NCBI RefSeq assembly: GCF_001422285.1
Contig: NZ_LMMO01000001.1
Coordinates: forward strand, 658,370 to 722,369
From: Frigoribacterium sp. Leaf263
GTDB taxonomy: Bacteria > Actinomycetota > Actinomycetes > Actinomycetales > Microbacteriaceae
Length of the DNA stretch: 64,000 bases
Reading direction: 5' to 3'
The translations under genes were made by a program, and so were the position numbers. Positions 2,060-62,148 of the stretch are shown here, piece after piece. The notes under the pieces were generated by a model. The model was given only the letters and a program-made list of their open reading frames with translations. It was not told where the DNA came from and ran no database searches. Numbering within the stretch: the stretch's first letter is position 1; each line of letters opens with the position of its first letter.

Positions 2060-4462
2060 TCAGCGCGCGATCGGGTTCGCGAGCGTCCCGGCGTAGATCA
2101 GCGACGACGACTGGGCCGCGAGGTCGACCATCTGCCGGGCGTCGCGCAGCTGCAGACGGTTCAGGCACGAGTGGTCGAACCGGTCGACGCGCAGATCGAG
2201 CGCGTCGGCGAGCGACGGGTGCTCGTCGGCGTGCCGGTCGACGCACTCGCCGACCAGGCGCCAGAACTCCCGGGCGGGCAGCATGCCGTCGTCGTCCAGC
2301 GCCGCCGCGAGGTACCGGAACACCCCGTCGAACACGTCGGTGAACACGGCCAGGGCCTTCTCGCGGTCGTCGACGGGCTGCACGATCCGGTCGACCAGGG
2401 GCGGCACCTCGCGGGGTGCGAGCAGCACGACCTCCTCGCCGATGTCCTTCATGAACACCGCCGTCGGCACGTGCCCCTCGAGCACGAGGATGAGGTTCTC
2501 GCCGTGCGGCATGAACGCGAGCTCGTGGGCGCGCAGGCAGTGCACCACCGGCCGCAGGTACGCGTGCAGATACGAGCGCACCCAGTCCTCGGCGCGCCTC
2601 CCCGACGCCCGGATGAGCGCCGACGCCAGCAGATCGCCCGCCGCGTCGCGGTGCAGCAGGCCCGCCATCGTCATGAGCCGCTCGCCTGGGGCGGTCAGCG
2701 GCACCGGGCTCTCGCGCCAGAGGGCGGCGATCATCTTCCGCTGCGGCGACGGGGTCGGGGTGCGGTGGTAGGCGTCGCCGGTGTAGCCGACGGAGGCGCG
2801 CTCCCTCAGGATCCGGAACCGCGCCTCCTGCAGGGTCGGGTCGGTGGTGACGAGCTCGTGCACCCAGTCGTTGATCGCGGGCGTCGGCCGCATGTACGCC
2901 GGCGACAGCCCCCGGAGGAACCCCATGTTCTGGATCGCCAGCGCCGTCTTCACGTAGGCCCGCTCGGGATGCGACCGGTTCGCCAGCGTGCGGATCGACT
3001 GCTGCGCCTGATAGTCGTCGTCGCCCTCGCCGAGCAGCACGAGGTCGCGCCGCCCGACGTCGGCGGAGAACGTGATCGCGATGCGGTGCTGCCACTGCCA
3101 CGGATGCACCGGCAGGTAGTGGTGGTCGGCCGGGTCGAGTCCCTTCGCGGCCAGGGTCGCGGCGAACCGGGCGAGGGTGCGCTCGCCGAGCTCGGCGTCG
3201 AGCAGCGTCCGCTCGTCGAGGCCGTCGCCGAGCGCGAGATGCGTGCCCGAACGGCGGGCGGCGAGCCAGACGAGCCGGATGGGCGCCGCCGTCTCGGGGG
3301 CGTAGGCGCGGAACTCGTCGAGCCCGAAGCCGATGCGCCCGTTCGCGGCGACGAACGCCGGGTGGCCCTCGGTCATCGCCGCCTCGATGCTCTGGAAGTC
3401 GGCCGTCGTCAGACGCTCCGCCGTCGGGCCGCCCTGCAGCCGCTTCGCCGCGGCGCTCGCCAGGGTCGACGAGAGCTCCTCGAGGTAGACGGCCATCAGC
3501 TCGTCGGGCAGCCCGAGGGCGCCCTGCAGCTCGGCGATCAGGTCGAGCGCGTCGAGCTCGGCGGGTGCGCCGTCGATCTCGCGGGCGACGCTCGGCTCGT
3601 CGACCACCCAGTGCTCGAGCTCGTGCACCCGGGCCAGGAACCGGTACACCACCACCGTCGGCGGACCCGACCGGGCGGGGCCCGAGGAGGCGCGGCTCGC
3701 CTCGCGCGGCTCGCCCGCCCCCTCGACGGTCAGCGACCACCACCCGTCGCCCTCGTCGTGCGGGGCGATCAGCCGCTCGTGCGAGAACTCCGACAGAGAC
3801 TTCGCGACGAGGTGCCGGTGGGCCCAGCCCATCGGCCCGGGCGCCAGGTGCGCGGCCGCGGCGTCGTGCCGCGTCAGCACCGACAGCCGCGCCCGCTTGT
3901 CGGGCAGGTCGACGTCGCCGACGGCGCGGAACCCGACCTCGTCGTTCTTCGCGGCGATGCGGCGGTTCTCGACGTCGGGTTCGACCACCACACGCCGGGC
4001 GCCGAGTCGCTCGACGACGAAGCGCACGACGGACGCCATGATCGCCGAGGTCAGCCCCGGCACCCGCTGCTCGGGCGGCGGCGCCGGTGCGACCAGCAGG
4101 TGCATGCCGACGTCGCCCGGTTCGGCGTCGTGCACGTCGGTCAGCAGCACGTGCGCCGGGTCGTAGGTCTCGACGTAGAACAGCGGCTCGCCGTCGACCC
4201 GCCCGAGCCACGCGTTCTGGTGCGGGTCGGCCGCGATGCCCGCGGCGTGGGCGCGCACGTCGTCGCCGCTGACGCCGCTCATGCCCCACGCCGCCGACGC
4301 CGGGTGCGAGAGCCAGCGACGCAGCGGCACCGCGTACGGCTCCGGGTCGAAGGGCTCGAGGGTGACCGGACCGCAGGAGGTGCGGTGCGAGAACGGCGCG
4401 ACCCGCGCCTCCTCGGCGGTTCGGGGCTCGGCGACGCCGGGCTCGGGGGTGAGGATGCTCAT
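2060..4462 (-). CDS. dfoC: Fused GNAT acyltransferase / IucA-IucC (NIS) siderophore synthetase
   Basis: This 800-residue protein is predicted to acylate N-hydroxy-diamine and then join the units, the last steps of hydroxamate (desferrioxamine-type) siderophore assembly. Residues about 30-200 form an acetyltransferase domain of the IucB/RhbD/DesC kind. Residues about 225-640 are an IucA/IucC ATP-dependent synthetase with HPWQWQH near residue 450, KTALAIQN near 504 and HGENL near 652, followed by the FhuF-like C-terminal region. In Streptomyces these are separate proteins (DesC, DesD); Erwinia DfoC is a known fusion. The ATG overlaps the stop of the upstream gene (ATGA) and has GAGGAGG before it. 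Copies of the dispersed GGAGGCGCG motif encode the N-terminal EEARV stretch and the linker residues RASS between the domains. Confidence 0.88.
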   Translation of the reverse strand: MSILTPEPGVAEPRTAEEARVAPFSHRTSCGPVTLEPFDPEPYAVPLRRWLSHPASAAWGMSGVSGDDVRAHAAGIAADPHQNAWLGRVDGEPLFYVETYDPAHVLLTDVHDAEPGDVGMHLLVAPAPPPEQRVPGLTSAIMASVVRFVVERLGARRVVVEPDVENRRIAAKNDEVGFRAVGDVDLPDKRARLSVLTRHDAAAAHLAPGPMGWAHRHLVAKSLSEFSHERLIAPHDEGDGWWSLTVEGAGEPREASRASSGPARSGPPTVVVYRFLARVHELEHWVVDEPSVAREIDGAPAELDALDLIAELQGALGLPDELMAVYLEELSSTLASAAAKRLQGGPTAERLTTADFQSIEAAMTEGHPAFVAANGRIGFGLDEFRAYAPETAAPIRLVWLAARRSGTHLALGDGLDERTLLDAELGERTLARFAATLAAKGLDPADHHYLPVHPWQWQHRIAITFSADVGRRDLVLLGEGDDDYQAQQSIRTLANRSHPERAYVKTALAIQNMGFLRGLSPAYMRPTPAINDWVHELVTTDPTLQEARFRILRERASVGYTGDAYHRTPTPSPQRKMIAALWRESPVPLTAPGERLMTMAGLLHRDAAGDLLASALIRASGRRAEDWVRSYLHAYLRPVVHCLRAHELAFMPHGENLILVLEGHVPTAVFMKDIGEEVVLLAPREVPPLVDRIVQPVDDREKALAVFTDVFDGVFRYLAAALDDDGMLPAREFWRLVGECVDRHADEHPSLADALDLRVDRFDHSCLNRLQLRDARQMVDLAAQSSSLIYAGTLANPIAR

Positions 4463-5898: not shown

Positions 5899-7448
5899 CG
5901 GGTCGACCCCTCGCCGGCCGGGGCGGTGGCGCCGGCCAGGTCGTCGCTCTCGAGCAGGGCCGCCGAGGAGGCGCGGATCAGCTCGAGCACGCCCGTCACG
6001 TCGGCGAGCACCGCCTCCGGGTTCAGCAGTGTGAGCTTCAGGCACGGTCGACCGTCGACGACCGTCTTCGCGACCACGGCGCGACCCGATTCGAAGAGCA
6101 CCCGCCGGACGAGCGGCACGAGGCGGTCGGCCGTCGCATCGTCGACGTGCCCGGGCTGCCAGCGGAACAGCACGGTGCTGAGCTGGGTCTCGGCGAGCAG
6201 CTCGAAGTCGTCGTCGTCGCGGACGACGGCGTGCACCTCGGCCGCGAGGTCGACGACGCGGTCGACCAGTCGACCGATCTCGTCGGCGCCGAGCGCGCGG
6301 AGGGTCGCCCAGAGCTTCAGCGCGTCGAAGCGGCGCGTGGTCTGCAGCGACTTCGCGACCTGGTTCGGCTCGGGGTCGGCGAGCGGGTTCAGGTAGTCGG
6401 CGTGCCAGGCGACGGGGTCGAGGTCGCGGCCGTCGCGCACGATGATCGCGCTCGACGACACCGGCTGGAAGAACGTCTTGTGGAAGTCGACGGTCACCGA
6501 GCGCGCCCGCTCGATGCCGTCGAGCAGGTGCCGCCGGGTCGGCGAGACGAGCAGGCCGCCGCCGTAGGCCGCGTCGACGTGCAGCCAGACGCCGGCGCGA
6601 TCGCAGACGGCGCCGATCGCCGCGAGGGGATCGATGCAGCCGCGGTCGGTGGTTCCGGCCGTCGCGACGACGGCGATCGGCAGATGCCCCGCCTGCACGA
6701 GGGCGTCGAGGGCGACCTCGAGGGCGTCGGCGCGCATCCGGCCCGCATCGTCCGTGGGCACGGTCACGACGGCGTCGTCGCCGAGACCCAGCAGGCGCGT
6801 CGCCTTCTGCACGCTGAAGTGGCTCTCGGCGGTGGCGACCACGACCATGCGGGCGAGCAGGTCGTGCAGCGACGTGGCACGGGGGAGGGGGCGGCGACCC
6901 GGGTCGCCCTGGTCGCGGACCCGCGCCTCCTCGGCCCGGCCCTCGTCGCGCGCCCTCGACGTGGCGCTCTCGCGGGCGAGCAGGAGGGCGTGCAGATTCG
7001 ACTGCGTGCCCCCCGAGGTGAAGACGCCGTCGCGGGTGGCGGGGTCGAATCCGATGCGACCGGCTGTCCAGTCGACGAGGCGGCGCTCCATCAGCGTGCC
7101 GACGGTCGACTGGTCGTAGGTGTCGACCGACGGGTTGATCGCGGCGAGCACCGCCTCGGCGGCGACGGCCGGCAGCGCGACGGGGCAGTTGAGGTGCGAC
7201 TGGTAGGCCGCGTCGTGGAACCAGACGGCGTTCGCGGCGAACAGCTCGTCGACCTCGCGGAGGGCGTCGGTCGTCCCGGTGCCGGGCGCGTCGAGATCGA
7301 CGGCGTCGACGAGCCGCTGCAGCTCGGCGCGGCTCTCGCCCGAGAAGGGCTGGCCGGTGGTGCGGAACCGGCCGGCGAGGCGATCGACGACCGCGGTCGT
7401 CTCGGCGGCGTAGGACTCCGCGGTGGAGGCGTTCAACAGATCGGACAC
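5895..7448 (-). CDS. desA: PLP-dependent decarboxylase of siderophore pathway (lysine to cadaverine)
   Basis: This 517-residue group II amino-acid decarboxylase resembles DesA/DfoJ and is the first gene of the siderophore operon. The PLP-binding lysine is K324 in the motif VDFHKTFF, and HVDAAYGGG is the usual cofactor-contact segment. The substrate is probably lysine, giving cadaverine; diaminobutyrate or ornithine cannot be excluded from sequence alone. The GTG start at 7448 has GGGAG about 10 nt upstream and lies 55 bp downstream of the iron box. A variable loop (residues about 155-190, rich in Arg, Glu and Asp) includes EEARV, encoded by a copy of the dispersed motif at 6922-6930 and probably not part of the fold. 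Confidence 0.88.
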   Translation of the reverse strand: MSDLLNASTAESYAAETTAVVDRLAGRFRTTGQPFSGESRAELQRLVDAVDLDAPGTGTTDALREVDELFAANAVWFHDAAYQSHLNCPVALPAVAAEAVLAAINPSVDTYDQSTVGTLMERRLVDWTAGRIGFDPATRDGVFTSGGTQSNLHALLLARESATSRARDEGRAEEARVRDQGDPGRRPLPRATSLHDLLARMVVVATAESHFSVQKATRLLGLGDDAVVTVPTDDAGRMRADALEVALDALVQAGHLPIAVVATAGTTDRGCIDPLAAIGAVCDRAGVWLHVDAAYGGGLLVSPTRRHLLDGIERARSVTVDFHKTFFQPVSSSAIIVRDGRDLDPVAWHADYLNPLADPEPNQVAKSLQTTRRFDALKLWATLRALGADEIGRLVDRVVDLAAEVHAVVRDDDDFELLAETQLSTVLFRWQPGHVDDATADRLVPLVRRVLFESGRAVVAKTVVDGRPCLKLTLLNPEAVLADVTGVLELIRASSAALLESDDLAGATAPAGEGSTR

Positions 7449-7640: not shown

Positions 7641-9800
7641 CTACAGGGCGGTGACCTCGAGCAGCACGAGGCTCTCCGGGAACAGCACCGGGGCCTGCAC
7701 CCCGCCGAGGCGGAGGGCGCGGCCCGGAGCGACGACCCCATCGACGGCCCAGGGCAGCGGCGACTGCCCCGGTCCGCCGAGCACGGCGGTCGGCTCGGCC
7801 AGGGCGACGCGGTACGTCCGGTCGTCGTCGAGGCCGGGGAACGTCATCGGCCCGGGCGGGTAGCTCGCGCTCGCCGACACCTGGGTGAACGTGTAGAGGG
7901 CGTGCGACCGGTCGGCGGAGACGACGCCCCGGAGGTCCATCGACGCGTCGGGGAGGTCCGCGAAGACCGCGGTGCCCCGGTGCAGCAGGTCGCGGTGGCG
8001 CTTGTGGGCGGCGACCCAGCTCGTCAGCTCGGCCTCGACGTCGGGCTCGAGCGACGAGATGTCCCACTCGATGCCGAAGTGCCCGGGCAGGGCGACGCCG
8101 GCCCGCAGCGAAAGGTCGTGACGCCGACCGGTCGAGTGCGACCGCGGTCCGCTGACGTGGGCGCCGGTCAGCTCGTAGGGCACGAGGAGGTTCGTGTACC
8201 TCTGGATGGTCAGGCGCTCGATCGGGTCGATGCAGTCGCTGGCCCAGATGCGGTCGGTCCGGTCGAGGATCCCGAGGTCGACGCGCGCGCCGCCCGAGGC
8301 GCAGCTCTCGATCTCGACCGACGGGTGCCTCCGCCGCAGCTCGTCGAGCAGGGCGTAGAGCGCGACGACGTTCTCGTGGACCGCCGGGTGCGCGGGCGAC
8401 CCGGCCCCCGCCTCCAGCAGGTCCCGGTTGTGATCCCACTTGAGATAGGCGATGTCGTTCTCGGTCAGCAGGGCGTCGAGTCGTTCGAGCAGGTAGTCGG
8501 TCACGGCGGGGTTCGACAGGTCGAGCACCTGCTGCTGACGCGCCGGGACCGGGAGGCGCGAGCCGGGTCGCAGGATCCACTCCGGGTGCGCGCGGGCCAG
8601 GTCGGAGTCGGGGCTGACCATCTCGGGCTCGACCCACAGCCCGAACTGCAGGCCGAGTCCGGTGACGTGCTCGATGATCGGGGTGAGGCCGTCGGGCCAG
8701 ACCTCGTCGTCGACGTACCAGTCGCCGAGGGCCGACGTGTCGTCGCGACGACCGCGGAACCAGCCGTCGTCGAGCACGAAGCGCTCGGCGCCGACCCGCG
8801 CGCCCGCTTCGGCGAGGGCGCTGAGACGAGCGAGGTCGTGGTCGAAGTAGACGGCCTCCCACGTGTTGAGGGTGACCGGTCGAGGCGACGCCGGGTGCTG
8901 CGGGCGGGAGCGCAGGAGGCGGTGGTACCGACCCGAGAGCTCGGTCAGTCCGTCGCCCCACGAGCCGATCGCCGCGGGGGAGTCGTAGCTCTCGCCCGGT
9001 GCGAGACGGACCTCGCCGGCTCCGAGCAGCTCGGCGGCGCGCGTGAGGGTGCTGCCCGTGATGGTCCGCTCGACGCTGACGCGGTGGTTGCCGCTCCAGG
9101 CGAGGTGGACGGCGTGCACGAGGCCGCGCTCGAAGCCGAAGCCGGGGGTGCCGGCGGCGAGCACGAGGGTGGCCTCGGCCCCCGGACGCCCCCGACGGCT
9201 CTCGCGGTCGTATCGGCCGACGGTCACCGCGTGACGCTGCGGGGTGCGCTCGCGCAGGTGGCGGCCGGTGGTGTCGAGCACCTCGCCGGCCGTGTGCGGC
9301 AGGGGGAACGTCGCGGCGAGCTCGTGCAGGTCGTAGACGTCGTCGCCGGTGTTCGTGAGGCGGAGCGTCTGGTGCAGCAGTCCGTGCACGTCGAGGCGCA
9401 GCTCGATGCGGAGGCGCAGCCCGACCTCGGCGTCGTCGGCGGTGACGACGAGGGTCGCGCCGTCGCCTTCGACGTCTTCGGCGCCGGCGAGCTCGTCGAC
9501 CTCGAAGGCGGGGGCGAAGTCCGAGCCCGCGCGGCTGCCGACGAGACCGGGCGTCCCCTGCCAGCCGTCGGACTGCAGGGGCACGAGCGTCAGACGCGTG
9601 GGCTCGTCGACGCCGCCCGAGACCCTCTGCGGACGGGAGGCCGTGACCAGGCCGGCCAGCGCCTCCTCGGAGACCTCGCCCAGATCGGGCCCCCAGTACA
9701 CGATGCCGGGCAGGCCCTGCGCGGGAGTGTCGATCACGACGCTCGTGCCGCCGAGGCGGAGGTGGCGGGCGGGGGTCATCTCGTCGTCGCGTCGTCGCAT
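7641..9800 (-). CDS. Alpha-galactosidase, glycoside hydrolase family 36
   Basis: This 719-residue cytoplasmic enzyme should release terminal alpha-galactose from raffinose-family sugars or melibiose. The N-terminal beta-sandwich leads into the catalytic barrel with VLDDGWF and GLWVEPEMVSPDSDL. LKWDHN carries the predicted nucleophile D456, and WASDCIDP carries the predicted acid/base D522. No signal peptide is visible. The ATG at 9800 is placed by a promoter whose transcript would begin at about that base; an internal ATG at 9779 (MTPARH) is the alternative. Divergent from a ROK-family regulator, the likely local controller. Confidence 0.9.
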   Translation of the reverse strand: MRRRDDEMTPARHLRLGGTSVVIDTPAQGLPGIVYWGPDLGEVSEEALAGLVTASRPQRVSGGVDEPTRLTLVPLQSDGWQGTPGLVGSRAGSDFAPAFEVDELAGAEDVEGDGATLVVTADDAEVGLRLRIELRLDVHGLLHQTLRLTNTGDDVYDLHELAATFPLPHTAGEVLDTTGRHLRERTPQRHAVTVGRYDRESRRGRPGAEATLVLAAGTPGFGFERGLVHAVHLAWSGNHRVSVERTITGSTLTRAAELLGAGEVRLAPGESYDSPAAIGSWGDGLTELSGRYHRLLRSRPQHPASPRPVTLNTWEAVYFDHDLARLSALAEAGARVGAERFVLDDGWFRGRRDDTSALGDWYVDDEVWPDGLTPIIEHVTGLGLQFGLWVEPEMVSPDSDLARAHPEWILRPGSRLPVPARQQQVLDLSNPAVTDYLLERLDALLTENDIAYLKWDHNRDLLEAGAGSPAHPAVHENVVALYALLDELRRRHPSVEIESCASGGARVDLGILDRTDRIWASDCIDPIERLTIQRYTNLLVPYELTGAHVSGPRSHSTGRRHDLSLRAGVALPGHFGIEWDISSLEPDVEAELTSWVAAHKRHRDLLHRGTAVFADLPDASMDLRGVVSADRSHALYTFTQVSASASYPPGPMTFPGLDDDRTYRVALAEPTAVLGGPGQSPLPWAVDGVVAPGRALRLGGVQAPVLFPESLVLLEVTAL

Positions 9801-9836: not shown

Positions 9837-9898
9837 GTCGCCGCCGGACGATCGAGGAGGCGCGTCGCCGGGGGGACGGATCGCCTCGCCCCGGTGGC

Positions 9899-11444: not shown

Positions 11445-12251
11445 TCAGTCGGCTGCGGCGGCGCCGCTCCGCAGCACCCGTTCGAGCAGCTCGAGGTCGA
11501 TCTTGACGTGCTCGCGCGCGATGCGCGCCGCCTCGGTCGAACGGCCGTCGCAGATCGCGTCGACGAGCGCCTCGTGGTCGCCGAGCGCCCGCAGCTCCAT
11601 CTCGCGCATGCCGTCGGGCCCGCCCCAGAGATGGGCCGGCGCTGCGATGCTGACCCGCGCCTCCAGGTCGAAGAGGACCCCGCGCAGCGTCGCGTTGTGC
11701 GCGGCATCGGCGATCGCGACGTGCAGCAGCTCGTCGGCCCGCTGCGACGCACGCCCCGACTCGGCCCGGCGGTAGCCCTCGAGCCGTTCGCGCAGCACCT
11801 CGGCGTCGGCGGTCGTGCGGTTCTCGGCGGCGGCCTCGGCGATCGTGCCGTGCAGGCGGCCGATCGCGTCGCTCGTGTCGCTGAGGTCGGCCCACCGCGC
11901 CCCGAGGGTCCGCTGCACGATCGCGTCCGACGACGTCGTGTGCTGCTCGCGGACGAACGAGCCGCCGCCGCGGCCGCGCTGGGTCTCGATCATGCCCTGC
12001 TCGACGAGGCGGGCGAGGGCGGCCCGGACGGTCATGCGCCCGGCCCGCAGCGAGGCGGCGAGGTCCCGCTCGGGAGGGAGGCGCTGGCCGGGCAGGTACT
12101 CGCCGGTCGCGATCGCGGTCACCAGCCGGTCGGTCACATCGTCGACGCGGCTCGACGACTCGACGGGCGCCGCGAGGGCTCCGGCGGGGGCGGAGGGGGT
12201 GCCGTCGGGCGCCCCGGCCGACCCGGCGTCGGCGGCCTCGTGTGGCGTCAT
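11445..12251 (-). CDS. GntR-family (FadR-type) transcriptional regulator
   Basis: A 268-residue regulator. After a 40-residue Ala/Gly/Pro-rich tail comes a GntR winged helix (GEYLPGQRLPPERDLAASL...MTVRAALARLVEQGMI), followed by an all-helical FCD-type ligand domain (ADELLHVAIADAAHN...GDHEALVDAI). The ATG at 12251 is preceded by GGGAGGG at good spacing, so I prefer it to the upstream GTG at 12287. It is divergent from the hydrolase/permease/amidase genes, with a palindrome between them, and is the likely repressor of that module. Confidence 0.85.
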   Translation of the reverse strand: MTPHEAADAGSAGAPDGTPSAPAGALAAPVESSSRVDDVTDRLVTAIATGEYLPGQRLPPERDLAASLRAGRMTVRAALARLVEQGMIETQRGRGGGSFVREQHTTSSDAIVQRTLGARWADLSDTSDAIGRLHGTIAEAAAENRTTADAEVLRERLEGYRRAESGRASQRADELLHVAIADAAHNATLRGVLFDLEARVSIAAPAHLWGGPDGMREMELRALGDHEALVDAICDGRSTEAARIAREHVKIDLELLERVLRSGAAAAD

Positions 12252-13260: not shown

Positions 13261-13316
13261 CGACCCGCGCCACCCGACCCGCGCCACCCGACCCGCGCCA
13301 CCCGACCCGCGCCTCC
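13261..13316. repeat. Four tandem 14-bp repeats after the hydrolase gene
   Basis: The unit CGACCCGCGCCACC is repeated at 13261, 13275 and 13289. The fourth unit (13303-13316) has changed to CGACCCGCGCCTCC, which creates a copy of the dispersed CGCGCCTCC motif. A further degenerate CGACCCGCACCTCC lies just beyond. Confidence 0.75.
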
Positions 13317-13382
13317 TGACCGACCCGACCCGCACCTCCCCGGCTCCACCCACCCCGCCCCACCCGAGCGAGAGAGCACACC

Positions 13383-40684: not shown

Positions 40685-40929
40685 GGTCGCCCGCCGGGTA
40701 TCGCCCGACCGGCCGTGCCGCCTGGCCGACGGTGTCGCCGGGCCGACCGTGTCGCCTCGCTGAGGCCCCGCCGGGCCGACGACACCCACCAGCCGGGCCG
40801 CGCCTCCCTGTGAGACCGCTGCGGAACGCCGACGTGACGTCCGCGGCCGGAATGAGCGCGCCTCCTCGGGGGTTCGTCTCGGGGTGCGCTCCGGCGCGCA
40901 ACGACATCCGTCTTCGAAAGGACTCCCCT

Positions 40930-43304: not shown

Positions 43305-43368
43305 CCCCGAGGAGGCGCGGCTCGGCCCCGGAGGAGGCGCGGCTCTGCCCCGAGGAGGCGCGGCTCGG
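43305..43368. repeat. Three tandem copies of the dispersed motif
   Basis: CCCCGAGGAGGCGCGGCTCGG (43305-43325), an almost identical unit with CTCTG at its end (43326-43347) and a third (43348-43368), identical to the first. They sit head to tail between the septum-domain gene and the phosphatidyltransferase gene. Confidence 0.85.
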
Positions 43369-44044: not shown

Positions 44045-44114
44045 CCGGGTCGGCGCGGCCCGCGCCTCCTGCGCTCCGGCGTCCGACCCTCACCGGCGTC
44101 TCGACGGGACGGCG

Positions 44115-45084: not shown

Positions 45085-45304
45085 CCGCTCACGCCGACCG
45101 GAGAGGCGGACGAGGAGGGGTCTCGATCGCCCGCACCGCGCCTCCGCCCGCCGAGGGACTGCGCATCGCCGCGTCGTTGTCAAGCCGCTCGCGTCGGCGC
45201 TCACGGGGCCTAGTGTTGATCAGGTCGCACGTGAACCCTGCACTCGTCACTCCAGCCCCCGGTGATGAGAGTCGGTCGCGGAAGCTGCGACCACAAAGGG
45301 CACA

Positions 45305-46651: not shown

Positions 46652-46654
46652 CCC

Positions 46655-49648: not shown

Positions 49649-51427
49649 ATGGGCGACCTCTTCAGCGGTTACGCGGCCACGGCCACCGGCGGCGGCACGG
49701 GCAGAAGGAGGCGCGTGGTCGAGAGCGCGCGGGTCGCGCCGCGTGCCTGGGACGAGATGTTCGACACCGACGGGCAGGCCCGCCGCGCCTACGCCGACAT
49801 CCACGCGACCCTCGAGGGCATGACGCAGGACGACCTGCGCGGTCGGACGGCGGCGCTCGCCGACTCGTACCTCGCGCAGGGCGTCACGTTCGACTTCGCG
49901 GGCGAGGAGCGCCCGTTCCCCCTCGACGCCGTGCCGCGGGTCGTCGAGCACGACGAGTGGTCGGGCGTCGAGGCGGGCATCGCGCAGCGGGTCAAGGCGC
50001 TCGAGGCGTTCCTGTCCGACGTCTACGGCGCGCAGCGAGCGGTCGCCGACGGCGTCATCCCCGCGAGCCTGCTGACCTCGTCGAGCCACTTCCATCGTCA
50101 GGCGGCGGGCATCGAGCCGGCCAACGGCGTGCGCATCCAGGTCTCGGGCATCGATCTCGTGCGCGACGAGGCGGGCGCCTGGTGCGTGCTCGAAGACAAC
50201 GTGCGGGTGCCGAGCGGCGTCAGCTACGTCATCTCGAACCGCCGCGTCATGGCCCAGACGCTGCCCGAGCTGTTCGTCTCGATGCGGGTGCGCCCGGTCG
50301 GCGACTACCCGAACCGTCTGCTGTCGGCCCTGAAGAAGAGCGCGCCGTCGGGCGTCGACGAGCCGACCGTCGTCGTGCTGACCCCGGGGGTCTTCAACTC
50401 GGCGTACTACGAGCACACCCTGCTGGCGCGTCTGATGGGCGTCGAGCTCGTCGAGGGCCGCGATCTCTACTGCTCGGGCGGCCGGGTGTTCATGCGGACG
50501 ACCGGCGGCCCCGAGCGGGTCGACGTCATCTACCGCCGGGTCGACGACGAGTTCCTCGACCCGCTGCAGTTCCGGGCCGACTCCGTGCTCGGTTCGCCGG
50601 GCCTCCTGATGGCGGCTCGTCTCGGCACCGTGACGATCGCGAACGCGGTCGGCAACGGGGTCGCCGACGACAAGCTCGTCTACACGTACCTGCCCGAGCT
50701 GATCCGCTACTACCTCGGCGAGGAGGCGCTCCTCCCGAACGTCCGCACCTGGCGTCTCGAGGACCCGGGCGCCCTCGACGAGGTGCTCGACCGCCTCGAC
50801 GAGCTCGTCGTGAAGCCCGTCGACGGCTCGGGCGGCAAGGGGCTGGTCGTCGGGCCGGCCGCCAGCCGTCGCGAGCTCGACGTGCTGCGGTCGCAGCTGC
50901 TCGCCGACCCGCGCGGCTGGATCGCGCAGCCGGTCGTGCAGCTGAGCACCATCCCGACCCTCGTCGACGAGGGACTCCGCCCCCGGCACGCCGACCTGCG
51001 GCCCTTCGCCGTGCACGACGGCGACGACGTCTGGGTGCTGCCCGGCGGGCTCACCCGGGTCGCCCTGCCCGAGGGCCAGCTGGTCGTCAACAGCAGTCAG
51101 GGCGGCGGCTCGAAGGACACCTGGATCGTCGGCGGCGACGTCAACGCCTGGGCCGGACACGACGTCAGCGCGCTGATCGCCGAGCAGACGACCCCGACCC
51201 AGTCGATCCCGATCGTCGACGCGTCGGCGCACCACGGCGACCACAGCCCCGATCACGCCCCTCAGGACGACCCGCGCAACGACCAGCAGGCGCAGCAGCA
51301 GCAGGAGCACCAGGAGCAGCAGCAACAGGCCCGGGAGGCGCGGGTCGGCCCACGAGGCCGCGCCGCGCCTCCTGCGGGCCCCCGCCCCGACCCCGGGGTC
51401 ACCACGTCGGAAGGAACGTCATGCTGA
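49649..51427 (+). CDS. Circularly permuted type 2 ATP-grasp protein
   Basis: A 592-residue predicted carboxylate-amine ligase. WDEMFDTDGQARRAY and QRVKALEAFLSDVYG open the fold; GIDLVRD, VLEDNVRVPSGVSYV, VVLTPGVFNSAYYEHTLLA and NAVGNGVADDKLVYTY are core motifs. VKPVDGSGGKG is the ATP loop. It is co-transcribed with alpha-E and transglutaminase-like genes, a widespread actinobacterial trio of unknown product. The last 90 residues (His, then Gln-rich, then Arg/Pro) are extra, and the end is encoded by an inverted pair of dispersed motifs. Confidence 0.9.
   Translation: MGDLFSGYAATATGGGTGRRRRVVESARVAPRAWDEMFDTDGQARRAYADIHATLEGMTQDDLRGRTAALADSYLAQGVTFDFAGEERPFPLDAVPRVVEHDEWSGVEAGIAQRVKALEAFLSDVYGAQRAVADGVIPASLLTSSSHFHRQAAGIEPANGVRIQVSGIDLVRDEAGAWCVLEDNVRVPSGVSYVISNRRVMAQTLPELFVSMRVRPVGDYPNRLLSALKKSAPSGVDEPTVVVLTPGVFNSAYYEHTLLARLMGVELVEGRDLYCSGGRVFMRTTGGPERVDVIYRRVDDEFLDPLQFRADSVLGSPGLLMAARLGTVTIANAVGNGVADDKLVYTYLPELIRYYLGEEALLPNVRTWRLEDPGALDEVLDRLDELVVKPVDGSGGKGLVVGPAASRRELDVLRSQLLADPRGWIAQPVVQLSTIPTLVDEGLRPRHADLRPFAVHDGDDVWVLPGGLTRVALPEGQLVVNSSQGGGSKDTWIVGGDVNAWAGHDVSALIAEQTTPTQSIPIVDASAHHGDHSPDHAPQDDPRNDQQAQQQQEHQEQQQQAREARVGPRGRAAPPAGPRPDPGVTTSEGTSC
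51334..51372. repeat. Inverted pair of the dispersed motif inside the ATP-grasp gene end
   Basis: GGAGGCGCGG (51334-51343) and CCGCGCCTCC (51363-51372) form 10-bp perfect inverted arms 19 bases apart, almost the geometry of the pair at 36418-36457. Together they encode the non-conserved AREARVGPRGRAAPPAGP tail. Confidence 0.7.
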
Positions 51428-52350: not shown

Positions 52351-53192
52351 GCCGCCTGCGGATCCGCCACCGGACCGGCTTCTCGTACCGGGGCGAGGCC
52401 GTCGCGAGCTACAACGAGGCGCGCATGCTGCCGGCCCACACCGAGGGCCAGTTCGTGCTGTCGTCGCATCTGCGCATCGAGCCGGTCGCGGCCACGCACG
52501 AGTACATCGACTACTGGGGCACCCGGGTGTCGTCGTTCGAGGTGCTGCTGCCGCACCGCGAGCTCTCGCTGACGGCGACGTCGCTCGTCGAGGTGCGCCC
52601 GCTCGAGCACCCCGACTCCGAGATGGACTGGACCGAGCTCGCCGCCGTCGCGGGGGCGACCACCGAGTTCGTCGAGCACCTCGAGCAGACGCCGCTCACC
52701 CGGCCGCCCGCCGAGCTCGTCGCCCTGGCCCGCGAGACCGCGGCGAAGGCCTCGTCGCCCCGCGCCGCCGGGCTCGCGATCTGCGAGCAGCTCGGCGACG
52801 CGGTCGCCTACCTGCCCGGGGTGACGAACGTGAAGACGACCGCCTCCGAAGCCTGGGAGGCGCGGGCCGGGGTCTGCCAGGACATCGCCCACATCACCGT
52901 GGGCGCGTTGCGCGCCGTGGGCATCCCCGCACGGTACGTCAGCGGCTACCTGCACCCGAAGCCGGCCGCCGAGCTGCGCGAGACCGTCACGGGCGAGTCG
53001 CACGCGTGGGTCGAGTACTACTGCGGATCGTGGCGCGGCTACGACCCGACCAACCTGATCGACATCGGCGAGCGGCACGTCATCGTCGGGCAGGGGCGCG
53101 ACTACCGCGACGTGCCGCCGTTGCGCGGCGTGTACGCGGGGTCGTCGAACTCGACGCTGTTCGTGACGGTCGAGATCACCCGGGAGGCGTGA
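52347..53192 (+). CDS. Transglutaminase-like cysteine protease family protein
   Basis: A 281-residue cytosolic protein. The N-terminal beta domain (LRIRHRTGFSYRGEAVASYNEARMLP) is typical of the family. The Cys-His-Asp triad lies in AGVCQDIAH (C about 177), GESHAWVEYY (H about 218) and GYDPTN (D about 233). It may cut or cross-link the product of the ATP-grasp partner. The GTG overlaps the alpha-E stop (GTGA). Confidence 0.9.
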   Translation: MSRLRIRHRTGFSYRGEAVASYNEARMLPAHTEGQFVLSSHLRIEPVAATHEYIDYWGTRVSSFEVLLPHRELSLTATSLVEVRPLEHPDSEMDWTELAAVAGATTEFVEHLEQTPLTRPPAELVALARETAAKASSPRAAGLAICEQLGDAVAYLPGVTNVKTTASEAWEARAGVCQDIAHITVGALRAVGIPARYVSGYLHPKPAAELRETVTGESHAWVEYYCGSWRGYDPTNLIDIGERHVIVGQGRDYRDVPPLRGVYAGSSNSTLFVTVEITREA

Positions 53193-54169: not shown

Positions 54170-55075
54170 TCAGCAGGCGGTGTACGAGTAGCCCGGCTCG
54201 TCCGCCGGCACGAGGTCGCGGTCCCGCACGATGGTCGACGGCGCGGTGTCGAGTGCGTCGACGCGTGCGCACACCTCGTCGGCCGTGCCCCGCAGGTCGT
54301 CGGTGTACTCGATGTCGAAGACGAGTCCGCCGTAGACGTCGGTGAAGGCTTCGCACTCGTCGAACAGATCGCACTCCTCGGTGACCGCGAAGTCGAAGCC
54401 GATCTCGTCGCGCCCCCGGGCCGCGAGATCGGTGGAGTTCTTCTGCGCCGCGGCGAGCCCGGCGTCGTGCGCCTCGGCGACGAGCAGGGTGGCGAACGCC
54501 ACGGCGTCCTCTTCGTCGAAGGCGCCCTCCGATCGGGTCCACGAGTCGAGGTTGTCGAACTCGACGGCCTGGTAGCCGGCATCGGCGCAGGCGGTGATCG
54601 TCTCGGCCTGGCGTGCGGCGATGGCCTGGCGGTTCACGTCGGTCGCGATGTCGAGCAGGTGCTCGTCGGGCCAGCCCGGGTCGACCAGGGGATCGCCGCC
54701 GGGCAGACGGACGAGCAGGTCGCGCGGCCAGTCGACGCCCGGCTGCGTCTGGAATCCGTTGACGTAGCAGACGCCGTACGCGTCGGCGGCGGGCGCCTCG
54801 GTGCTGTCGCGGGCGACGACGGCGGCTCCGTCGGGGACGGGCGACGCGCCTCCCAGCTGGTAGTCGAAGCGGGCTCCCGCGGGTGGCAGGGCGATGTCGG
54901 CGGCGTCGGACGAGGAGGCGCGGGTCGACGCGTCGCCCGCCCCCGCCGAGCAGGCGGTCGCGCCGAGCACGAGCGCGGTGGCCGCCAGCACGGCCGCCCC
55001 GATGCGACGGCCCCGGGCGTCGAGACGCCGACGGCCGGATCGGACGGGAGGGGGTACGACGGGGGACTGCTTCAC
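54170..55075 (-). CDS. GH114-type endo-alpha-1,4-polygalactosaminidase-like lipoprotein
   Basis: A 301-residue exported lipoprotein with lipobox LGATAC (Cys about 42). The mature part follows the GH114 barrel: ARFDYQLGGA, CYVNGFQTQPGVDW, GYQAVEFDNLDSW, AAAQKNSTDL, FDFAVTEECDLFDECEAF and VFDIEYTDD. The family cleaves galactosaminogalactan-like polymers. The variable stretch after the lipobox (STRASSSDA) contains a dispersed-motif copy. TAGGCT (55087-55082) lies six bases before the GTG. Confidence 0.82.
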   Translation of the reverse strand: MKQSPVVPPPVRSGRRRLDARGRRIGAAVLAATALVLGATACSAGAGDASTRASSSDAADIALPPAGARFDYQLGGASPVPDGAAVVARDSTEAPAADAYGVCYVNGFQTQPGVDWPRDLLVRLPGGDPLVDPGWPDEHLLDIATDVNRQAIAARQAETITACADAGYQAVEFDNLDSWTRSEGAFDEEDAVAFATLLVAEAHDAGLAAAQKNSTDLAARGRDEIGFDFAVTEECDLFDECEAFTDVYGGLVFDIEYTDDLRGTADEVCARVDALDTAPSTIVRDRDLVPADEPGYSYTAC

Positions 55076-55136: not shown

Positions 55137-55841
55137 TCAGCCCGCAGGCGTGCGAGTGGGCGTCTCGGCGGTCGTCGACGTCGGCGCCGCGGTCGGAGCG
55201 TCGCGCGCGACGAGGAACCTCGCCCGCGCCTCGGCGGAGGCCTGCTCGCGCTCGAGATCCTGACGCTCCCGGTTCGACCGCGCGCTCTCGCGTGCGGCGC
55301 CGAGGGCCCGCGAGTTCTCTCGCGCGAGCCCGGCGGCGGCGGCGGAGGCGCGCCGCACGCCGTCTCCGGCGGTGCGCCCGGTGCTGCGCACGCGCTCCCA
55401 CGACGATCGGGCCAACGGCGCCGCGCCGGTTGCGAGGGCGGCGCCTCGTGCCCGGAGGCGGTCGGCCGACCCCGGCCCGCTCAGCACGCTCGACGGGGGT
55501 GCGTCGACGGGCGAGCCGTCCGCGGGGGCGACGGGGGCGTCGGAGGTGGCGGGTCGCGCCTCCTCGGCAGGGTCGTCGTCGAACGTGCCGTCGGAGCCGG
55601 GTGGCAGCGCCCCGAGAGTCCGGTCGACGACCCCGACGAGCGCGAGGGCGAGACCGGCGACGACGAGACCGACACCGAGCAGCGCGAACGCGACCGCCTC
55701 GAAGTCGAGGTCGGTGAACGCGAGGTAGTCGTCGCCGAAGAGTCCCATCTGCGCGAGACGGAACGTGGAGGCGACCGAGACCAGCACGCCGGCGGTGGTC
55801 ATGGTGAGTCCTGCGGTGACCGCAGCGCTCGCTCGACTCAT
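55137..55841 (-). CDS. Two-helix membrane protein with Ala/Arg-rich tail
   Basis: A 234-residue protein. Two N-terminal helices (AAVTAGLTMTTAGVLVSVAS and AVAFALLGVGLVVAGLALALVG) and a long cytoplasmic tail, first Pro/Asp-rich, then a charged helix (LARENSRALGAARESARSNRERQDLEREQASAEARAR). No family recognised. Three dispersed-motif copies lie in or beside it (55344, 55555, 55870). ATG 55841 with GGAGG. Confidence 0.6.
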   Translation of the reverse strand: MSRASAAVTAGLTMTTAGVLVSVASTFRLAQMGLFGDDYLAFTDLDFEAVAFALLGVGLVVAGLALALVGVVDRTLGALPPGSDGTFDDDPAEEARPATSDAPVAPADGSPVDAPPSSVLSGPGSADRLRARGAALATGAAPLARSSWERVRSTGRTAGDGVRRASAAAAGLARENSRALGAARESARSNRERQDLEREQASAEARARFLVARDAPTAAPTSTTAETPTRTPAG

Positions 55842-56042
55842 GGGGCACCTCCGTTCGCGGATCGGTTCAGGAGGCGCGCGAAGGCGTGCTCTCCTGGTGC
55901 GAATGTAGTCCCCGGCCGGGATCGCCGCGTAACGATCGGGCGGCGACGGGTGACGCGCCGACTCGTGCACACCCCGCACGTTCCGGGCGGTTGCACGGTC
56001 GATGCGTGGGCTTTACCGATCTGGAGCCGACACGATCGCCTC

Positions 56043-58313: not shown

Positions 58314-58499
58314 GCGTCCTCCATGGCGGGCGGCGGTGACCGTCCGTTTCGTGCCTGTGGTACCCGTCGCACGAAGAGGTGGAAAGGTCCGTCCAGTTTA
58401 GATGCTGGGACATCCTCATCGGTCAGCCTAGAGGGGAGCGGTGGACCGGCAGGCCCCCAGTGCGCGGGTCGACAGAACCGTCGGCCGAGGAGGCGCGGG

Positions 58500-59903: not shown

Positions 59904-59962
59904 GACACGACCGGCGGACGCACGACGGCCGTCCCGGGTCGAGGAGGCGCGGTGTCGGTCAT
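59900..59962 (-). other. Possible 20-codon leader ORF before the MFS gene
   Basis: ATG at 59962 opens MTDTAPPRPGTAVVRPPVVS and stops in TGA that overlaps the GTG of the MFS gene (GTGA). TATCGT (59977-59972) lies 9 bases before the ATG. Proline- and arginine-rich leaders can slow ribosomes. Coding status is unproven; it could be chance. Confidence 0.25.
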
Positions 59963-60111
59963 CGAGTGACCACGATAATCGCTCCGCCGCGTCGCCGCCG
60001 AGGTCGGTGCGGATCGTGCGACTCTGCGGCGCGCGCAGTGCGTTCCGTGGCCCGACACCCGTCGGACACCGGGCGGACACGCGCTGTTGACGACGGACCG
60101 GTCGACTGACG

Positions 60112-60136
60112 GGGTCCCCCGATCAGGGGTGGACCC
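60112..60136 (+). promoter_or_regulatory. Hairpin in the alkaline phosphatase leader
   Basis: GGGTCC-CCC (60112-60120), loop GATCA, GGG and GGACCC (60126-60136) form a two-part stem about 33 bases before the GTG start. The role is not known. TTGACG at about 60087 may belong to the promoter. Confidence 0.4.
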
Positions 60137-60168
60137 GCACCGTCGATCACCTGGAGCAGGAGCACGAA

Positions 60169-62148
60169 GTGACCCCCACGACCCGCCGCCGCCGCGCGGC
60201 CCTCATCACGGGGGCGGTGGCGATCAGCGCCTCCCTGGCCCTCGCCCCCGCCGTCGCGTCCGCGGCGACGCCGTCCGACGTCGCCGAGAACGGCGGCGCC
60301 GCCCGCAGCATCGACGACAGCACGCAGGTGCTGCTCGACTCGGTGAAGGCCGGCCCCGCGAAGAACGTCATCCTGCTGATCGGCGACGGCATGGGCGACT
60401 CCGAGATCACCTCGGCGCGCAACTACGCCTACGGCGCCGGCGGGCAGCTGCCCGGCATCGACGCCCTGCCGCTGACCGGCCAGTACACGACGTACTCGCT
60501 GTACCGCGACGGTGCGAACAAGGGCGAGCCCGACTACGTGCCCGACTCCGCCGCGACCGGCTCGGCCTGGGCCACCGGCACCAAGACGTACGACAACGCG
60601 ATCTCGGTCGACATCGACGGCGTCCCGCAGGACACCCTGCTCGAGATCGCGAAAGCGAACGGCAAGAAGACCGGCAACGTGTCGACGGCGGAGCTGCAGG
60701 ACGCGACGCCGGCCGTGCAGGCCGCCCACGTCGCCGCGCGGAGCTGCTACGGCCCCGACTCGGTGACCCAGTGCGGCGCCGACGCCCTCGACCAGGGCGG
60801 TCTCGGCTCGATCAGCGAGCAGATCATCGGCACCCGTGCCGACGTCACCCTCGGAGGAGGCGCGGCGTCGTTCACGCAGACCGCCCGCGCCGGTCAGTGG
60901 CAGGGCGAGACCCTGTTCGACCAGGCGGCCGACCGCGGATACCAGATCGTCCGCGACGCCGCGGGCCTCGACGCCGTGGCCGCGGCCGGCCAGGCGGCCC
61001 CGGTGCTCGGCACCTTCACCGACGGCAACTTCCCGACGCGCTTCGCCGCGACGACAGCGACCGTCGGCGGGGCCGACCTCGCGCCGCAGACCTGCACGCC
61101 GAACCCCGAGCGCCTCTCGACCGACCTCTCGCTGCGCTCGCTCACCGAGAAGTCGATCGATCTGCTCGACACCGGCGACCAGGGCTTCTTCCTGCAGGTC
61201 GAGGGGGCGTCGATCGACAAGCGCGACCACAGCGCCGACGCCTGCGGCCAGATCGGCGAGGTGCTCGACCTCGACGAGGCCGTGCGGGCCGCGCTCGACT
61301 TCGCCATCGCCGACGGCGACACGATGGTCATCGTCACCGCCGACCACGCGCACACCAGCCAGATCGTCGACAGCACGCCGCCCGCGACGCTCAGCACCGC
61401 GCTGACCACGGTCGACGGCACCACGATGAAGATCGCCTACGGCACGGCCGCGGCCGGCGGATCGCAGCAGCACACCGGTTCGCAGCTGCGGGTCGCGGGC
61501 TACGGCCCCGGCGCCGGCAACGTGGTCGGCCTCATCGACCAGACGGACAACTTCTTCACGATCAGCAACGCCCTCGAGCTCGACCGCGACCTCGACGGAC
61601 TGAGCGCCGCCGCGACGGTCTCGGCCCCGAGCGAGGTCTCACCCGAGACCTCCTTCACGGTCTCGGGCGCGGGGCTGAACGGCGACCGCCAGGTGCGGGC
61701 CGTCCTCGACGCCGGTGACGGCGCCGACCCGGTCGACCTCGGTCTGTCCGACGTGGTCGACGGCACCGTGACGCTCACCGCGACGGCTCCCGCCGAGGCG
61801 GGGAACGCGACGGTCACCCTGACCGGCGTGCAGTCGGGAGTCACCGCGAGCGCGGTCGTGGCGGTCGTCGACGGCGCGGTCGCGCCGGTTCCGACGGCGA
61901 CCCCGGCGCCCGGCGACCCCTCGGCGACGCCCACCGACCCGGCCGGCGTCGTGCCGGTCGGAGACGACGGCAGCGCCGGCGGTGCGGGCACGGCCGGCTC
62001 CGGCCCGCTGGCCTTCACCGGGTCGGAGGCGCTGCCGGCGCTGGTGCTCGCCCTGATGCTCGTCGTCTCGGGCGCCGTGCTCGTGGCTCGCCGTCGTCGC
62101 CAGCAGCAGCTCGCCTCGGCGAACGGGGACCTGGGGCCGCAGCTGTAG
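60169..62148 (+). CDS. phoA: Alkaline phosphatase with LAFTG cell-wall sorting signal
   Basis: A 659-residue exported enzyme. Twin-Arg-rich signal ([28 protein letters not shown]), then the PhoA domain: [18 protein letters not shown] (metal Asp), [15 protein letters not shown] with nucleophile S127, [13 protein letters not shown] and [10 protein letters not shown] (metal ligands). A C-terminal Ig-like domain (about 480-575) and a Pro/Thr/Gly linker lead to LAFTG, a hydrophobic helix and RRRRQQQ, the class E sortase signal. So it is probably a wall-anchored phosphate scavenger. GTG 60169 follows GGAGCAGGAG. Confidence 0.93.

What the first reader, a model, noticed from the sequence alone, without database searches (positions are those of the whole stretch)
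2593..60864. A short sequence, GGAGGCGCG (extended CCGAGGAGGCGCGGGTCGG), is scattered about 50 times over 64 kb
I counted about 27 copies on the plus strand and 22 on the minus strand. With about 70% GC and independent bases, only about four or five would be expected on both strands, so this is roughly a tenfold excess. Both strands are used about equally, which argues against a segregation signal of KOPS type. It could be an uptake- or recombination-type signal, a protein-binding site, or a self-spreading miniature sequence. I know of no described role in Microbacteriaceae.
Basis: partly seen in the sequence, partly recalled or inferred. Interest (0 to 1): 0.8.

Follow-up and report, generated by a model that had tools for sequence, protein, structure and literature searches.

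The report
Likely DNA-uptake tag in Frigoribacterium
These bacteria carry about a thousand exact copies of one short DNA word, and many related genera carry their own spelling of a similar word, which looks like the self-DNA tags that some other bacteria use to recognise DNA worth taking up; I found no report of such a tag in this branch of bacteria.

Summary
GGAGGCGCG occurs 28+/22- in the window, against 4.7 expected. The 11-mer AGGAGGCGCGG occurs 945 times in the 3.24-Mb genome; its mirror control 19. The genus is Frigoribacterium. All 10 of its genomes counted carry 383-1106 copies; 388 other Microbacteriaceae genomes carry 0-78, about the level of the mirror.

It is not codon usage (5- and 18-fold above synonymous shuffles), not a decaying repeat (one-base variants of the inner core are at background), and not strongly strand-polar. 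Copies lie in genes in both orientations, are 5-7 times denser between genes (more between convergent than divergent genes), often pair as inverted repeats, and are retained at orthologous sites.

Other Microbacteriaceae have related motifs (CGGATGCCGCGG, CGGATGCC[T/A]CG, GGCGGATGCGG). CGGATGCSGCG is at least 3-fold above control in 61 of 84 other genera (one genome each), but at background in 4 of 4 Frigoribacterium and in 144 of 148 genomes of other families of the order.

Best explanation (0.6): a DNA-uptake-sequence system with genus dialects, as in Neisseriaceae and Pasteurellaceae, in a third, Gram-positive family. Uptake is inferred, not shown; comEA/comEC are present, but also in genera without the motif.

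The parts
2593..2601 (-). 9-mer GGAGGCGCG
2792..2800 (+). 9-mer; convergent inverted pair with 2819
2819..2829 (-). 11-mer AGGAGGCGCGG, in gene, kept in 4 of 4 aligned relatives
3685..3695 (+). 11-mer
4403..4413 (-). 11-mer
5966..5976 (+). 11-mer, in gene, kept in 6 of 6 aligned relatives
6921..6931 (-). 11-mer, in gene, kept in 6 of 6 aligned relatives although flanks differ
8552..8560 (+). 9-mer
9856..9864 (+). 9-mer, intergenic
11656..11664 (-). 9-mer
13307..13317 (-). 11-mer, intergenic
14750..14760 (+). 11-mer near the 3' end of an amino-acid permease gene; the 6 aligned relatives without it each differ by one core base, no gap
14899..14909 (-). 11-mer, intergenic
16554..16562 (-). 9-mer
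17717..17725 (+). 9-mer
19329..19339 (-). 11-mer, in gene, kept in 2 of 2 aligned relatives
22917..22927 (-). 11-mer
24743..24753 (+). 11-mer
28297..28305 (-). 9-mer; divergent inverted pair with 28350
28350..28358 (+). 9-mer
31200..31208 (+). 9-mer
31645..31655 (+). 11-mer within the full CCGAGGAGGCGCGGGTCGG
31994..32002 (-). 9-mer
34798..34808 (-). 11-mer, in gene, kept in 1 of 2 aligned relatives
34884..34892 (+). 9-mer
36418..36428 (+). 11-mer close to the 3' end of an Rce1-like (CAAX protease) gene, upstream of recQ; 11 of 14 relatives have the exact 11-mer at this gene end though flanks differ
36448..36456 (-). 9-mer forming a convergent inverted pair with 36418 at the gene end; the predicted hairpin is not better than shuffles (z -0.5)
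39747..39757 (+). 11-mer
40799..40807 (-). 9-mer, intergenic
40857..40865 (-). 9-mer, intergenic
42619..42627 (-). 9-mer
42896..42904 (+). 9-mer
42911..42919 (+). 9-mer
43310..43320 (+). 11-mer, first of three in tandem 21-22 bp apart, intergenic
43332..43342 (+). 11-mer, second of three in tandem
43353..43363 (+). 11-mer, third of three in tandem
44060..44070 (-). 11-mer, intergenic
45137..45145 (-). 9-mer
49707..49715 (+). 9-mer
51334..51342 (+). 9-mer; convergent inverted pair with 51363; strong predicted hairpin (-47.2 kcal/mol, z -4.8)
51363..51373 (-). 11-mer, partner of 51334
52856..52864 (+). 9-mer
54845..54853 (-). 9-mer
54913..54923 (+). 11-mer
55344..55352 (+). 9-mer
55555..55563 (-). 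9-mer
55870..55878 (+). 9-mer
58488..58498 (+). 11-mer just past the 3' end of an MFS transporter gene
59942..59952 (+). 11-mer
60855..60865 (+). 11-mer, in gene, kept in 1 of 7 aligned relatives; the others differ by substitutions without gaps

Best explanation
The motif is a self-DNA tag that works like the DNA uptake sequences of Neisseriaceae (DUS) and Pasteurellaceae (USS). Frigoribacterium spells it AGGAGGCGCGG, at its longest CCGAGGAGGCGCGGGTCGG. Inferred mechanism: DNA released by kin is caught at the surface of a competent cell by a receptor that reads the motif (unidentified; a Tad/Flp-pilus subunit or a protein working with ComEA is my guess), passes through ComEA and ComEC, and recombines with the chromosome. 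Because motif-bearing fragments enter more often, copies made by point mutation are kept and spread by biased recombination. They settle where they do least harm: between genes, at gene ends, and as inverted pairs that may serve as terminators. Sister genera read other spellings, so the tag would also limit gene flow between genera. Shown here: the excess, genus restriction, dialects, sharpness of the core, placement, conservation, and presence of comEA-, comEC- and pilus-ATPase-type genes. Inferred: competence, the receptor, uptake bias and drive.
For: Copy number and control: 945 against 19. Genus restriction: 10 of 10 Frigoribacterium genomes 383-1106, 388 other family genomes at most 78; 16 of 16 genus genomes carry the 19-mer, 4-74 copies, control 0. 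Not coding: synonymous shuffle. No strand polarity by block. Near-exponential spacing apart from an excess of close, mostly inverted pairs: 25 inverted against 9 direct under 120 bp. Intergenic density 5-7 times coding; 20 9-mers in 3.9 kb of convergent against 9 in 7.8 kb of divergent intergenic DNA. Retention at aligned sites: 56 of 91 for the 11-mer against 0.16 pooled for 11-mers of the same GC count; substitutions without gaps at well-aligned coding sites. Sharp core: variants at 0-based positions 1-5, 7 and 8 are at background; position 0, the C at 6 and the last two bases are soft (same shape in 924 kb). Fewer in likely foreign DNA: 0 11-mers in 28 kb of GC below 66%, 8.5 expected from the mean rate. 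Dialects in sister genera, above every synonymous shuffle in 11 of 12 genomes tested (the twelfth, G017, gave 0 against 0, where my gene finder found nothing useful). The same change (C to T at the sixth base of GGA[G/T]GC) is tolerated in both dialects. ComEC in 30 of 30 and a ComEA-type HHH match in 30 of 30 family genomes (17 of 30 over the curated cut-off), neighbouring in G000; T2SSE-family ATPase in 25 of 25. The published DUS profile matches: dialects, one of them differing by a one-base insertion, inverted pairs at terminators, high conservation, absence from recent acquisitions (passages of PMC3630211 and PMC2397512).
Against: No uptake or transformation experiment was possible. comEA and comEC are equally present in genera without the motif, so they permit but do not predict it. 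A pair of neighbouring PilB- and PilT-like ATPase hits (my labels) does not track the motif: absent from the hits in motif-rich G000, G074, G093 and G155, present in motif-poor G019 and G101. Frigoribacterium's word differs from the main family word by a substitution and probably a deleted base, so their common origin is inferred from shape. Retention is high but not the highest: the 11-mer ranks 19th of 456 11-mer classes, the 9-mer 70th of 736. Orientation hints: in the complete genome G006, 100 of 181 + strand copies of a 14-mer lie in the first 46% (p 0.014, - strand not listed); in G155 the family word is 47+/27- in one 100-kb block (p 0.027), the only one of 12 blocks from other genomes below 0.05; between tandem genes of G000 the 9-mer is 10 sense to 26 antisense (p 0.011), the 11-mer 10 to 13. 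The low-GC depletion is partly composition, and 11-mers are not clearly rarer in the part of the window without relatives (3 of 24 in 15.3 of 64 kb). Copies are spread evenly along genes, without the gene-end bias reported for Pasteurellaceae (abstract of PMC2346458).
Confidence: 0.6

Rival explanations
1. Chi-like site: the motif tells a RecBCD- or AdnAB-type nuclease to stop degrading and start recombination, and has diverged between genera.
For: Genome-wide, short, non-palindromic, conserved, genus-specific; in genes and in conserved DNA; weak orientation hints in G006 and G155.
Against: Chi sites act in one orientation and are strand-biased (recalled); here strands are balanced in all six G000 blocks and in 11 of 12 blocks of other genomes. 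Strong enrichment between genes and in inverted pairs is not expected. An 11-base core is long for Chi (recalled).
Confidence: 0.13
2. Binding site of a nucleoid-organising or chromosome-maintenance protein present throughout the family.
For: Near-random spacing over the sampled chromosome, hundreds to thousands of sites, family-wide with drift.
Against: Sharp 9-11 base core with background-level neighbours, non-palindromic, kept in both orientations even at the cost of codon choice, inverted pairs at gene ends. No known nucleoid factor with this pattern comes to mind (recalled).
Confidence: 0.13
3. Small repeated or mobile element (REP/BIME-like or terminator hairpin) amplified in the genus.
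For: Intergenic enrichment, inverted pairs of which some can fold, some tandem copies (43310-43363); CGGATGCGGCG occurs in the E. coli REP consensus as I recall it.
Against: No excess of decayed inner-core copies, no flank pairing (4.36 against 4.54 shuffled), most 11-mers in predicted genes (75 of 116), substitutions without gaps at well-aligned coding sites, no Y1_Tnp in G000 or in 14 further genomes.
Confidence: 0.07
4. By-product of codon usage, peptide preference (EEAR, GGA) or GC-rich composition.
For: Some coding copies encode EEAR or GGA; composition is 73% GC.
Against: Synonymous shuffles, mirror controls and 388 other family genomes at background.
Confidence: 0.01

Closest known systems
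DNA uptake sequence (DUS) of Neisseriaceae, with dialects
   Same: Hundreds to thousands of exact short copies, coding and intergenic, inverted pairs at gene ends, high conservation, genus/species dialects of a shared heart, one of them with a one-base insertion (passages of PMC3630211 and PMC2397512).
   Different: Another sequence, another phylum (Actinomycetota, Gram-positive), uptake not shown, no ComP-like receptor identified, 73% GC host.
Uptake signal sequence (USS) of Pasteurellaceae
   Same: A 9-base word with many copies and a second variant in some species (passages of PMC1939737), also inside genes (abstract of PMC2346458).
   Different: In-gene copies are even along the gene here, not biased to gene ends as that abstract says; no AT-rich flanking tracts (recalled for USS; here flank information fades within about 8 bp); uptake not shown.
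Micrococcus luteus competence (ComEA-ComEC with Tad/Flp pili)
   Same: An actinobacterium transformed through comEA-comEC and a tad cluster (passages of PMC6370729 and PMC8467076); matches to the same gene families in the Frigoribacterium genome.
   Different: 'Uptake sequence' has 0 occurrences in the main text of PMC8467076.
HIP1 of cyanobacteria (recalled)
   Same: Very abundant short word in coding and non-coding DNA.
   Different: HIP1 is palindromic; this motif is not and shows inverted pairing and genus dialects.

Membership tests
DUS/USS (uptake sequences) | Great excess of one exact short word on both strands of the whole genome | tested here: met
   945 against mirror 19; 16 of 16 genomes of the genus carry the 19-mer
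DUS/USS (uptake sequences) | Copies inside genes beyond codon usage, plus intergenic enrichment | tested here: met
DUS/USS (uptake sequences) | Inverted pairs near gene ends | tested here: met
   25 inverted against 9 direct close pairs; several near-perfect hairpins by 3' ends, others inside genes; of three inverted pairs of the window that were folded, one clearly beats shuffles
DUS/USS (uptake sequences) | Core conserved above its surroundings between species | tested here: inconclusive
   Retention well above words of the same GC and clear single cases; but the column-by-column profile around the core is noisy and does not show a clean step
DUS/USS (uptake sequences) | Rare in recently acquired DNA | tested here: inconclusive
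   0 11-mers in 28 kb of low-GC DNA; 5 of 50 9-mers in the 15.3 kb of the window that aligns to no relative, p 0.02; GC confounds, and 3 of 24 11-mers lie there
DUS/USS (uptake sequences) | Related dialects in sister taxa | tested here: met
DUS/USS (uptake sequences) | Competence genes present | tested here: met
   ComEC 30 of 30, ComEA-type 30 of 30 (17 over cut-off), T2SSE ATPase 25 of 25; not discriminating
DUS/USS (uptake sequences) | DNA with the motif is taken up preferentially | not testable with these tools
   needs a transformation assay
DUS/USS (uptake sequences) | Sequence-specific surface receptor | not tested
   no candidate identified
Chi | Orientation bias relative to replication | tested here: not met
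   six G000 blocks balanced; no whole-replichore map; weak hints in G006 and G155
KOPS | Strong strand skew on each replichore | tested here: not met
REP/RAYT | Palindromic unit with flanking complementarity | tested here: not met
   stem score 4.36 against 4.54 shuffled
REP/RAYT | Y1 transposase in the host | tested here: not met
   0 of 1 and 0 of 14 genomes; the search rings in 5 of 14 control genomes
REP/RAYT | Confined to intergenic DNA | tested here: not met
   75 of 116 11-mers in predicted genes

The most novel reading that the evidence does not exclude
Microbacteriaceae as a family run a sequence-specific DNA-uptake system with genus dialects of one word (GGA[T/G]GC plus a variable tail). 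It would be the first in Gram-positive bacteria, would have arisen independently of Neisseriaceae and Pasteurellaceae, would be absent or lost in several genera including many with reduced genomes, and would act as a mating-type-like barrier between genera. Frigoribacterium would be a genus whose receptor and word changed together.
Probability: 0.5. Interest if true: 0.93.

Novelty: new variant of a known kind. Interest (0 to 1): 0.86.

Why it matters
A 2016 review names two families with sequence-specific DNA uptake, Pasteurellaceae and Neisseriaceae (PMC5031613, passage). A third, in Actinomycetota, with a related word over most of the genera sampled, would allow a direct test of whether such words arise by molecular drive, how receptor and word change together, and whether they isolate lineages. 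It would also predict how to transform these bacteria in the laboratory: put their word on the donor DNA.

Tried and rejected
Hairpin with a constant loop: suggested by CCGA...TCGG; flank pairing is not above shuffled flanks. The first attempt at a pair-covariation table stopped with a division error (after its base-composition tables had printed) and was replaced by that stem test.

Ribosome-binding site (AGGAGG): rejected because copies lie in all frames and both orientations and the sister motifs lack AGGAGG.

Mobile element: Y1_Tnp sought in G000 and 14 others, none.

Competence genes as a predictor: ComEC, ComEA and T2SSE ATPase surveyed; none separates motif-rich from motif-poor genera. 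The pilus idea (a PilB-like plus a PilT-like ATPase) failed, since motif-rich G000, G074, G093 and G155 have no strong PilB-like hit.

Genera sampled de novo without a clear motif: G069, G031, G033 and G059 (the last with 20 kb only), G065 and G082. G022, G085 and G192 showed other words, not followed. For G017, G041, G043 and G026 the GGATGC-type word stands at z 4-7, about as high as the best unrelated words in samples without a motif, so those four dialects are tentative. G069 has 78 copies of AGGAGGCGCGG against mirror 27, but its 80 kb shows no enriched motif.

Replichore map: not obtained; see below.

Print: searches listed no paper on an uptake sequence or family-wide repeat in Microbacteriaceae or other Actinomycetota. 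I saw only the 10-20 best rows of each (up to 904 hits); most subscription papers and all preprints are not held.

Rows set aside: one search used alignments of 300 bases or more and ungapped columns only; one search counted as intergenic only gaps of 350 bp or less. The gene finder is my own simple one (83% coding) and misses genes in atypical DNA. The G017 line (0 against 0) is uninformative. One search counts one genome per genus (84), not all 195 non-Frigoribacterium rows; its numbers were copied by hand, and genomes of one genus differ (e.g. g85: 556 against 19 in G120, 59 against 19 in G177).

Full report
WHAT IS THERE. The window is part of a 3.24-Mb genome (G000:C1:658370-722369). GGAGGCGCG occurs 28 times on + and 22 on - in the window, against 4.7 expected from an order-4 Markov model. 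AGGAGGCGCGG occurs 457 + and 488 - in the genome against 9 and 10 for the mirrored word.

HOW WIDE. All 16 Frigoribacterium genomes searched carry the 19-mer CCGAGGAGGCGCGGGTCGG, 4 to 74 copies each, mirror 0. In 398 Microbacteriaceae genomes the 11-mer is at 383-1106 copies in the 10 Frigoribacterium genomes (mirror 7-27) and at 0-78 in the other 388, about the level of the mirror (the 78 are in G069, mirror 27).

NOT CODONS. In 384 kb of G000 (window plus 320 kb) with genes called by a simple gene finder (312 genes, 83% coding), 90 sense and 86 antisense copies of the 9-mer lie in genes; 30 shuffles of synonymous codons give means of 20 and 13 and maxima of 26 and 20. For the 11-mer it is 41 and 34 against 2.6 and 1.5.

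THE CORE IS SHARP. Of the single-base variants of AGGAGGCGCGG, those at the second to sixth, eighth and ninth bases are at background (17 in all against about 24 expected, my sum over the rows), while the exact word has 116 against 1.8. The first base, the C at the seventh place and the last two bases are soft. In 924 kb of ten Frigoribacterium genomes: 330 exact copies, 0-7 copies per variant at the inner positions, but 47 of AGGAGGCGCTG and 17 of AGGAGGTGCGG; the mirrored word 4 (no expectation computed there). A decaying repeat family should leave many near copies. Flank information fades within about 8 bases, and the two flanks do not pair.

WHERE THE COPIES LIE. Per kb: 9-mer 0.55 in genes and 2.76 in short intergenic DNA; 11-mer 0.24 and 1.65. 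Convergent intergenic DNA has 20 9-mers in 3.9 kb, divergent 9 in 7.8 kb (p 1e-4). Between tandem genes the 9-mer is 10 sense to 26 antisense (p 0.011), the 11-mer 10 to 13. Along genes the copies are even (40, 29, 35, 37, 35 by fifths). Distances between neighbours are near exponential except below 100 bp (31 against 16); of 34 pairs under 120 bp, 25 are inverted, some of them near-perfect hairpins beside gene 3' ends, others inside genes. In the window, the pair 51334/51363 folds far better than shuffles (z -4.8), while the pairs 36418/36448 (z -0.5) and 2792/2819 (z -1.2) do not.

STRANDS. They are balanced in each of six blocks of G000 (p 0.89). In 12 blocks of other genomes the family word is balanced in 11; in G155 it is 47+/27- (p 0.027) in a block whose genes lie mostly on one strand. 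In the finished genome G006 the first 100 of 181 + copies of a 14-mer lie in the first 46% (p 0.014; - copies not listed), so a mild bias remains possible.

EVOLUTION. At orthologous places of the window in 14 same-genus genomes (about 79-86% identity), the 11-mer is exactly kept in 56 of 91 aligned cases, against 0.16 pooled for 11-mers of the same GC count; the 9-mer in 117 of 235 against 0.18. Some other words are kept better (rank 19 of 456 11-mer classes, 70 of 736 9-mer classes), and the column-by-column identity profile around the core is noisy. At the well-aligned coding sites 14750 and 60855 the genomes without the word show no gap and one or few changed core bases; intergenic sites mostly align poorly, with gaps. 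At the gene end at 36418, 11 of 14 genomes have the exact word although the surroundings differ. In 2-kb bins below 66% GC there are 0 11-mers in 28 kb where the mean rate gives 8.5 (lower GC itself explains part of this). In the 15.3 kb of the window that aligns to none of the 14 there are 5 of the 50 9-mers (p 0.02), but 3 of 24 11-mers, a density like that of the part aligned in most genomes.

DIALECTS. De novo counting in 60-100-kb samples of other Microbacteriaceae gave as top or near-top word: CGGATGCCGCG(G) in G353 (34 against 1.6), G155 (33 against 2.0), G180 (17 against 0.8) and, as CGGATGCCGC or a close register, G016 (24 against 2.0), G094, G103 and G077; CGGATGCC[T/A]CG in G093 (same genus as G353 and G155); GGCGGATGCGG in G366 (12 against 0.8); CCGGATGCC in G249 (26 against 4.4). 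Tentative, at noise level: ACGGATGC in G017, CGGATGCGC in G026 and G043, CGGATGCG in G041. G026's CGGATGCGC is one substitution from Frigoribacterium's CGGAGGCGC. In 11 of 12 genomes these words exceed every synonymous shuffle (the twelfth, G017, uninformative). CGGATGCSGCG was counted in 199 family genomes: with one genome per non-Frigoribacterium genus, 61 of 84 are at least 3-fold above the mirror, 51 of 84 with at least 50 copies; 14 are below 2-fold, 7 of these with genomes under 2 Mb. The highest is G155, 2086 against 48. The 4 Frigoribacterium genomes are at background (16-31 against 33-41). In a draw of 159 genomes of the order, 11 are Microbacteriaceae; of the 148 from 19 other families, 144 are below 3-fold and 4 are above by my reading of the table (G520 53 against 7, G457 26 against 6, G462 28 against 7, G510 54 against 15). 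The sixth base of the heart tolerates C to T in both dialects (12 against 1.7 in CGGATGCCGCG; 9 against 1.1 in AGGAGGCGCGG).

MACHINERY. G000 has comEA- and comEC-type matches side by side (C3:586953 and 587837). ComEC is found in 30 of 30 family genomes, ComEA-type in 30 of 30 (17 over the curated cut-off), a T2SSE-family ATPase, probably Tad-type, in 25 of 25. None of these separates genera with and without the motif. PilB-like hits above 450 bits occur in 11 of 25, not in G000 nor in motif-rich G074, G093 and G155. In Micrococcus luteus, another actinobacterium, transformation needs comEA-comEC and a tad cluster (passages of PMC8467076 and PMC6370729).

READING. Most of this is what uptake sequences look like. 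The published profile is: thousands of copies; eight Neisseriaceae dialects, one with an inserted base; inverted pairs associated with terminators; conservation above the surroundings; single-mismatch forms at sites of loss; absence from recent acquisitions (passages of PMC3630211 and PMC2397512). The claim that it works like a DUS rests on this; the claim that it is one needs an uptake assay. Chi and KOPS fit badly on polarity and placement, REP on structure, placement and transposase. A nucleoid-protein site is not excluded.

NOVELTY. A 2016 review names Pasteurellaceae and Neisseriaceae as the two families with sequence tags for uptake (PMC5031613, passage). My eight searches of the open library (best rows only) listed nothing of the kind on Microbacteriaceae or other Actinomycetota.

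Noticed in passing
G000:C3 about 138400-139930 (locus L148, about 18400-19930): A dense local array of roughly 15-bp tandem units (GTGACTGGCAC / GCACTGACGTGAC / GTCACGTCGGTG), 19, 13 and 29 word matches, within the 384 kb found only at this place; perhaps a repetitive coding stretch.
   Followed up: partly
window 43310-43363: Three copies of the motif in tandem, 21-22 bp apart, downstream of a Septum_form-domain gene; G014 aligns with two exact copies and G002 with one.
   Followed up: partly
G085 sample (L252-L253): GTCCCTGAG / GACCGTGTGGG words, 8-10 copies in 40 kb against 0.3 or fewer expected: another short repeat in that genome.
   Followed up: no
G192 sample (L263-L265): GGTTGAGTAGC, 12 copies in 60 kb against less than 0.1 expected, in a genome that also has 738 CGGATGCSGCG: an AT-richer short repeat of its own.
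   Followed up: no
G022 sample (L231-L233): GCGAGGCGCGG, 12 against 0.3 in 60 kb, resembling the Frigoribacterium tail GAGGCGCGG; local repeat or another dialect.
   Followed up: no
G005:C1:324164-327263, G015:C1:3261355-3264379, and G016, G044, G077, G103, G180, G192, G019, G101, G031: Neighbouring PilB-like (454-468 bits) and PilT-like ATPase hits (my labels) in 11 of 25 Microbacteriaceae genomes, suggesting a type-IVa pilus locus that G000 lacks among the hits.
   Followed up: partly
CGGATGCGGCG: As I recall it, the E. coli REP (PU) consensus contains GCCGGATGCGGCG, matching one form of the family pattern; perhaps coincidence, since no Y1_Tnp was found in 15 genomes.
   Followed up: partly
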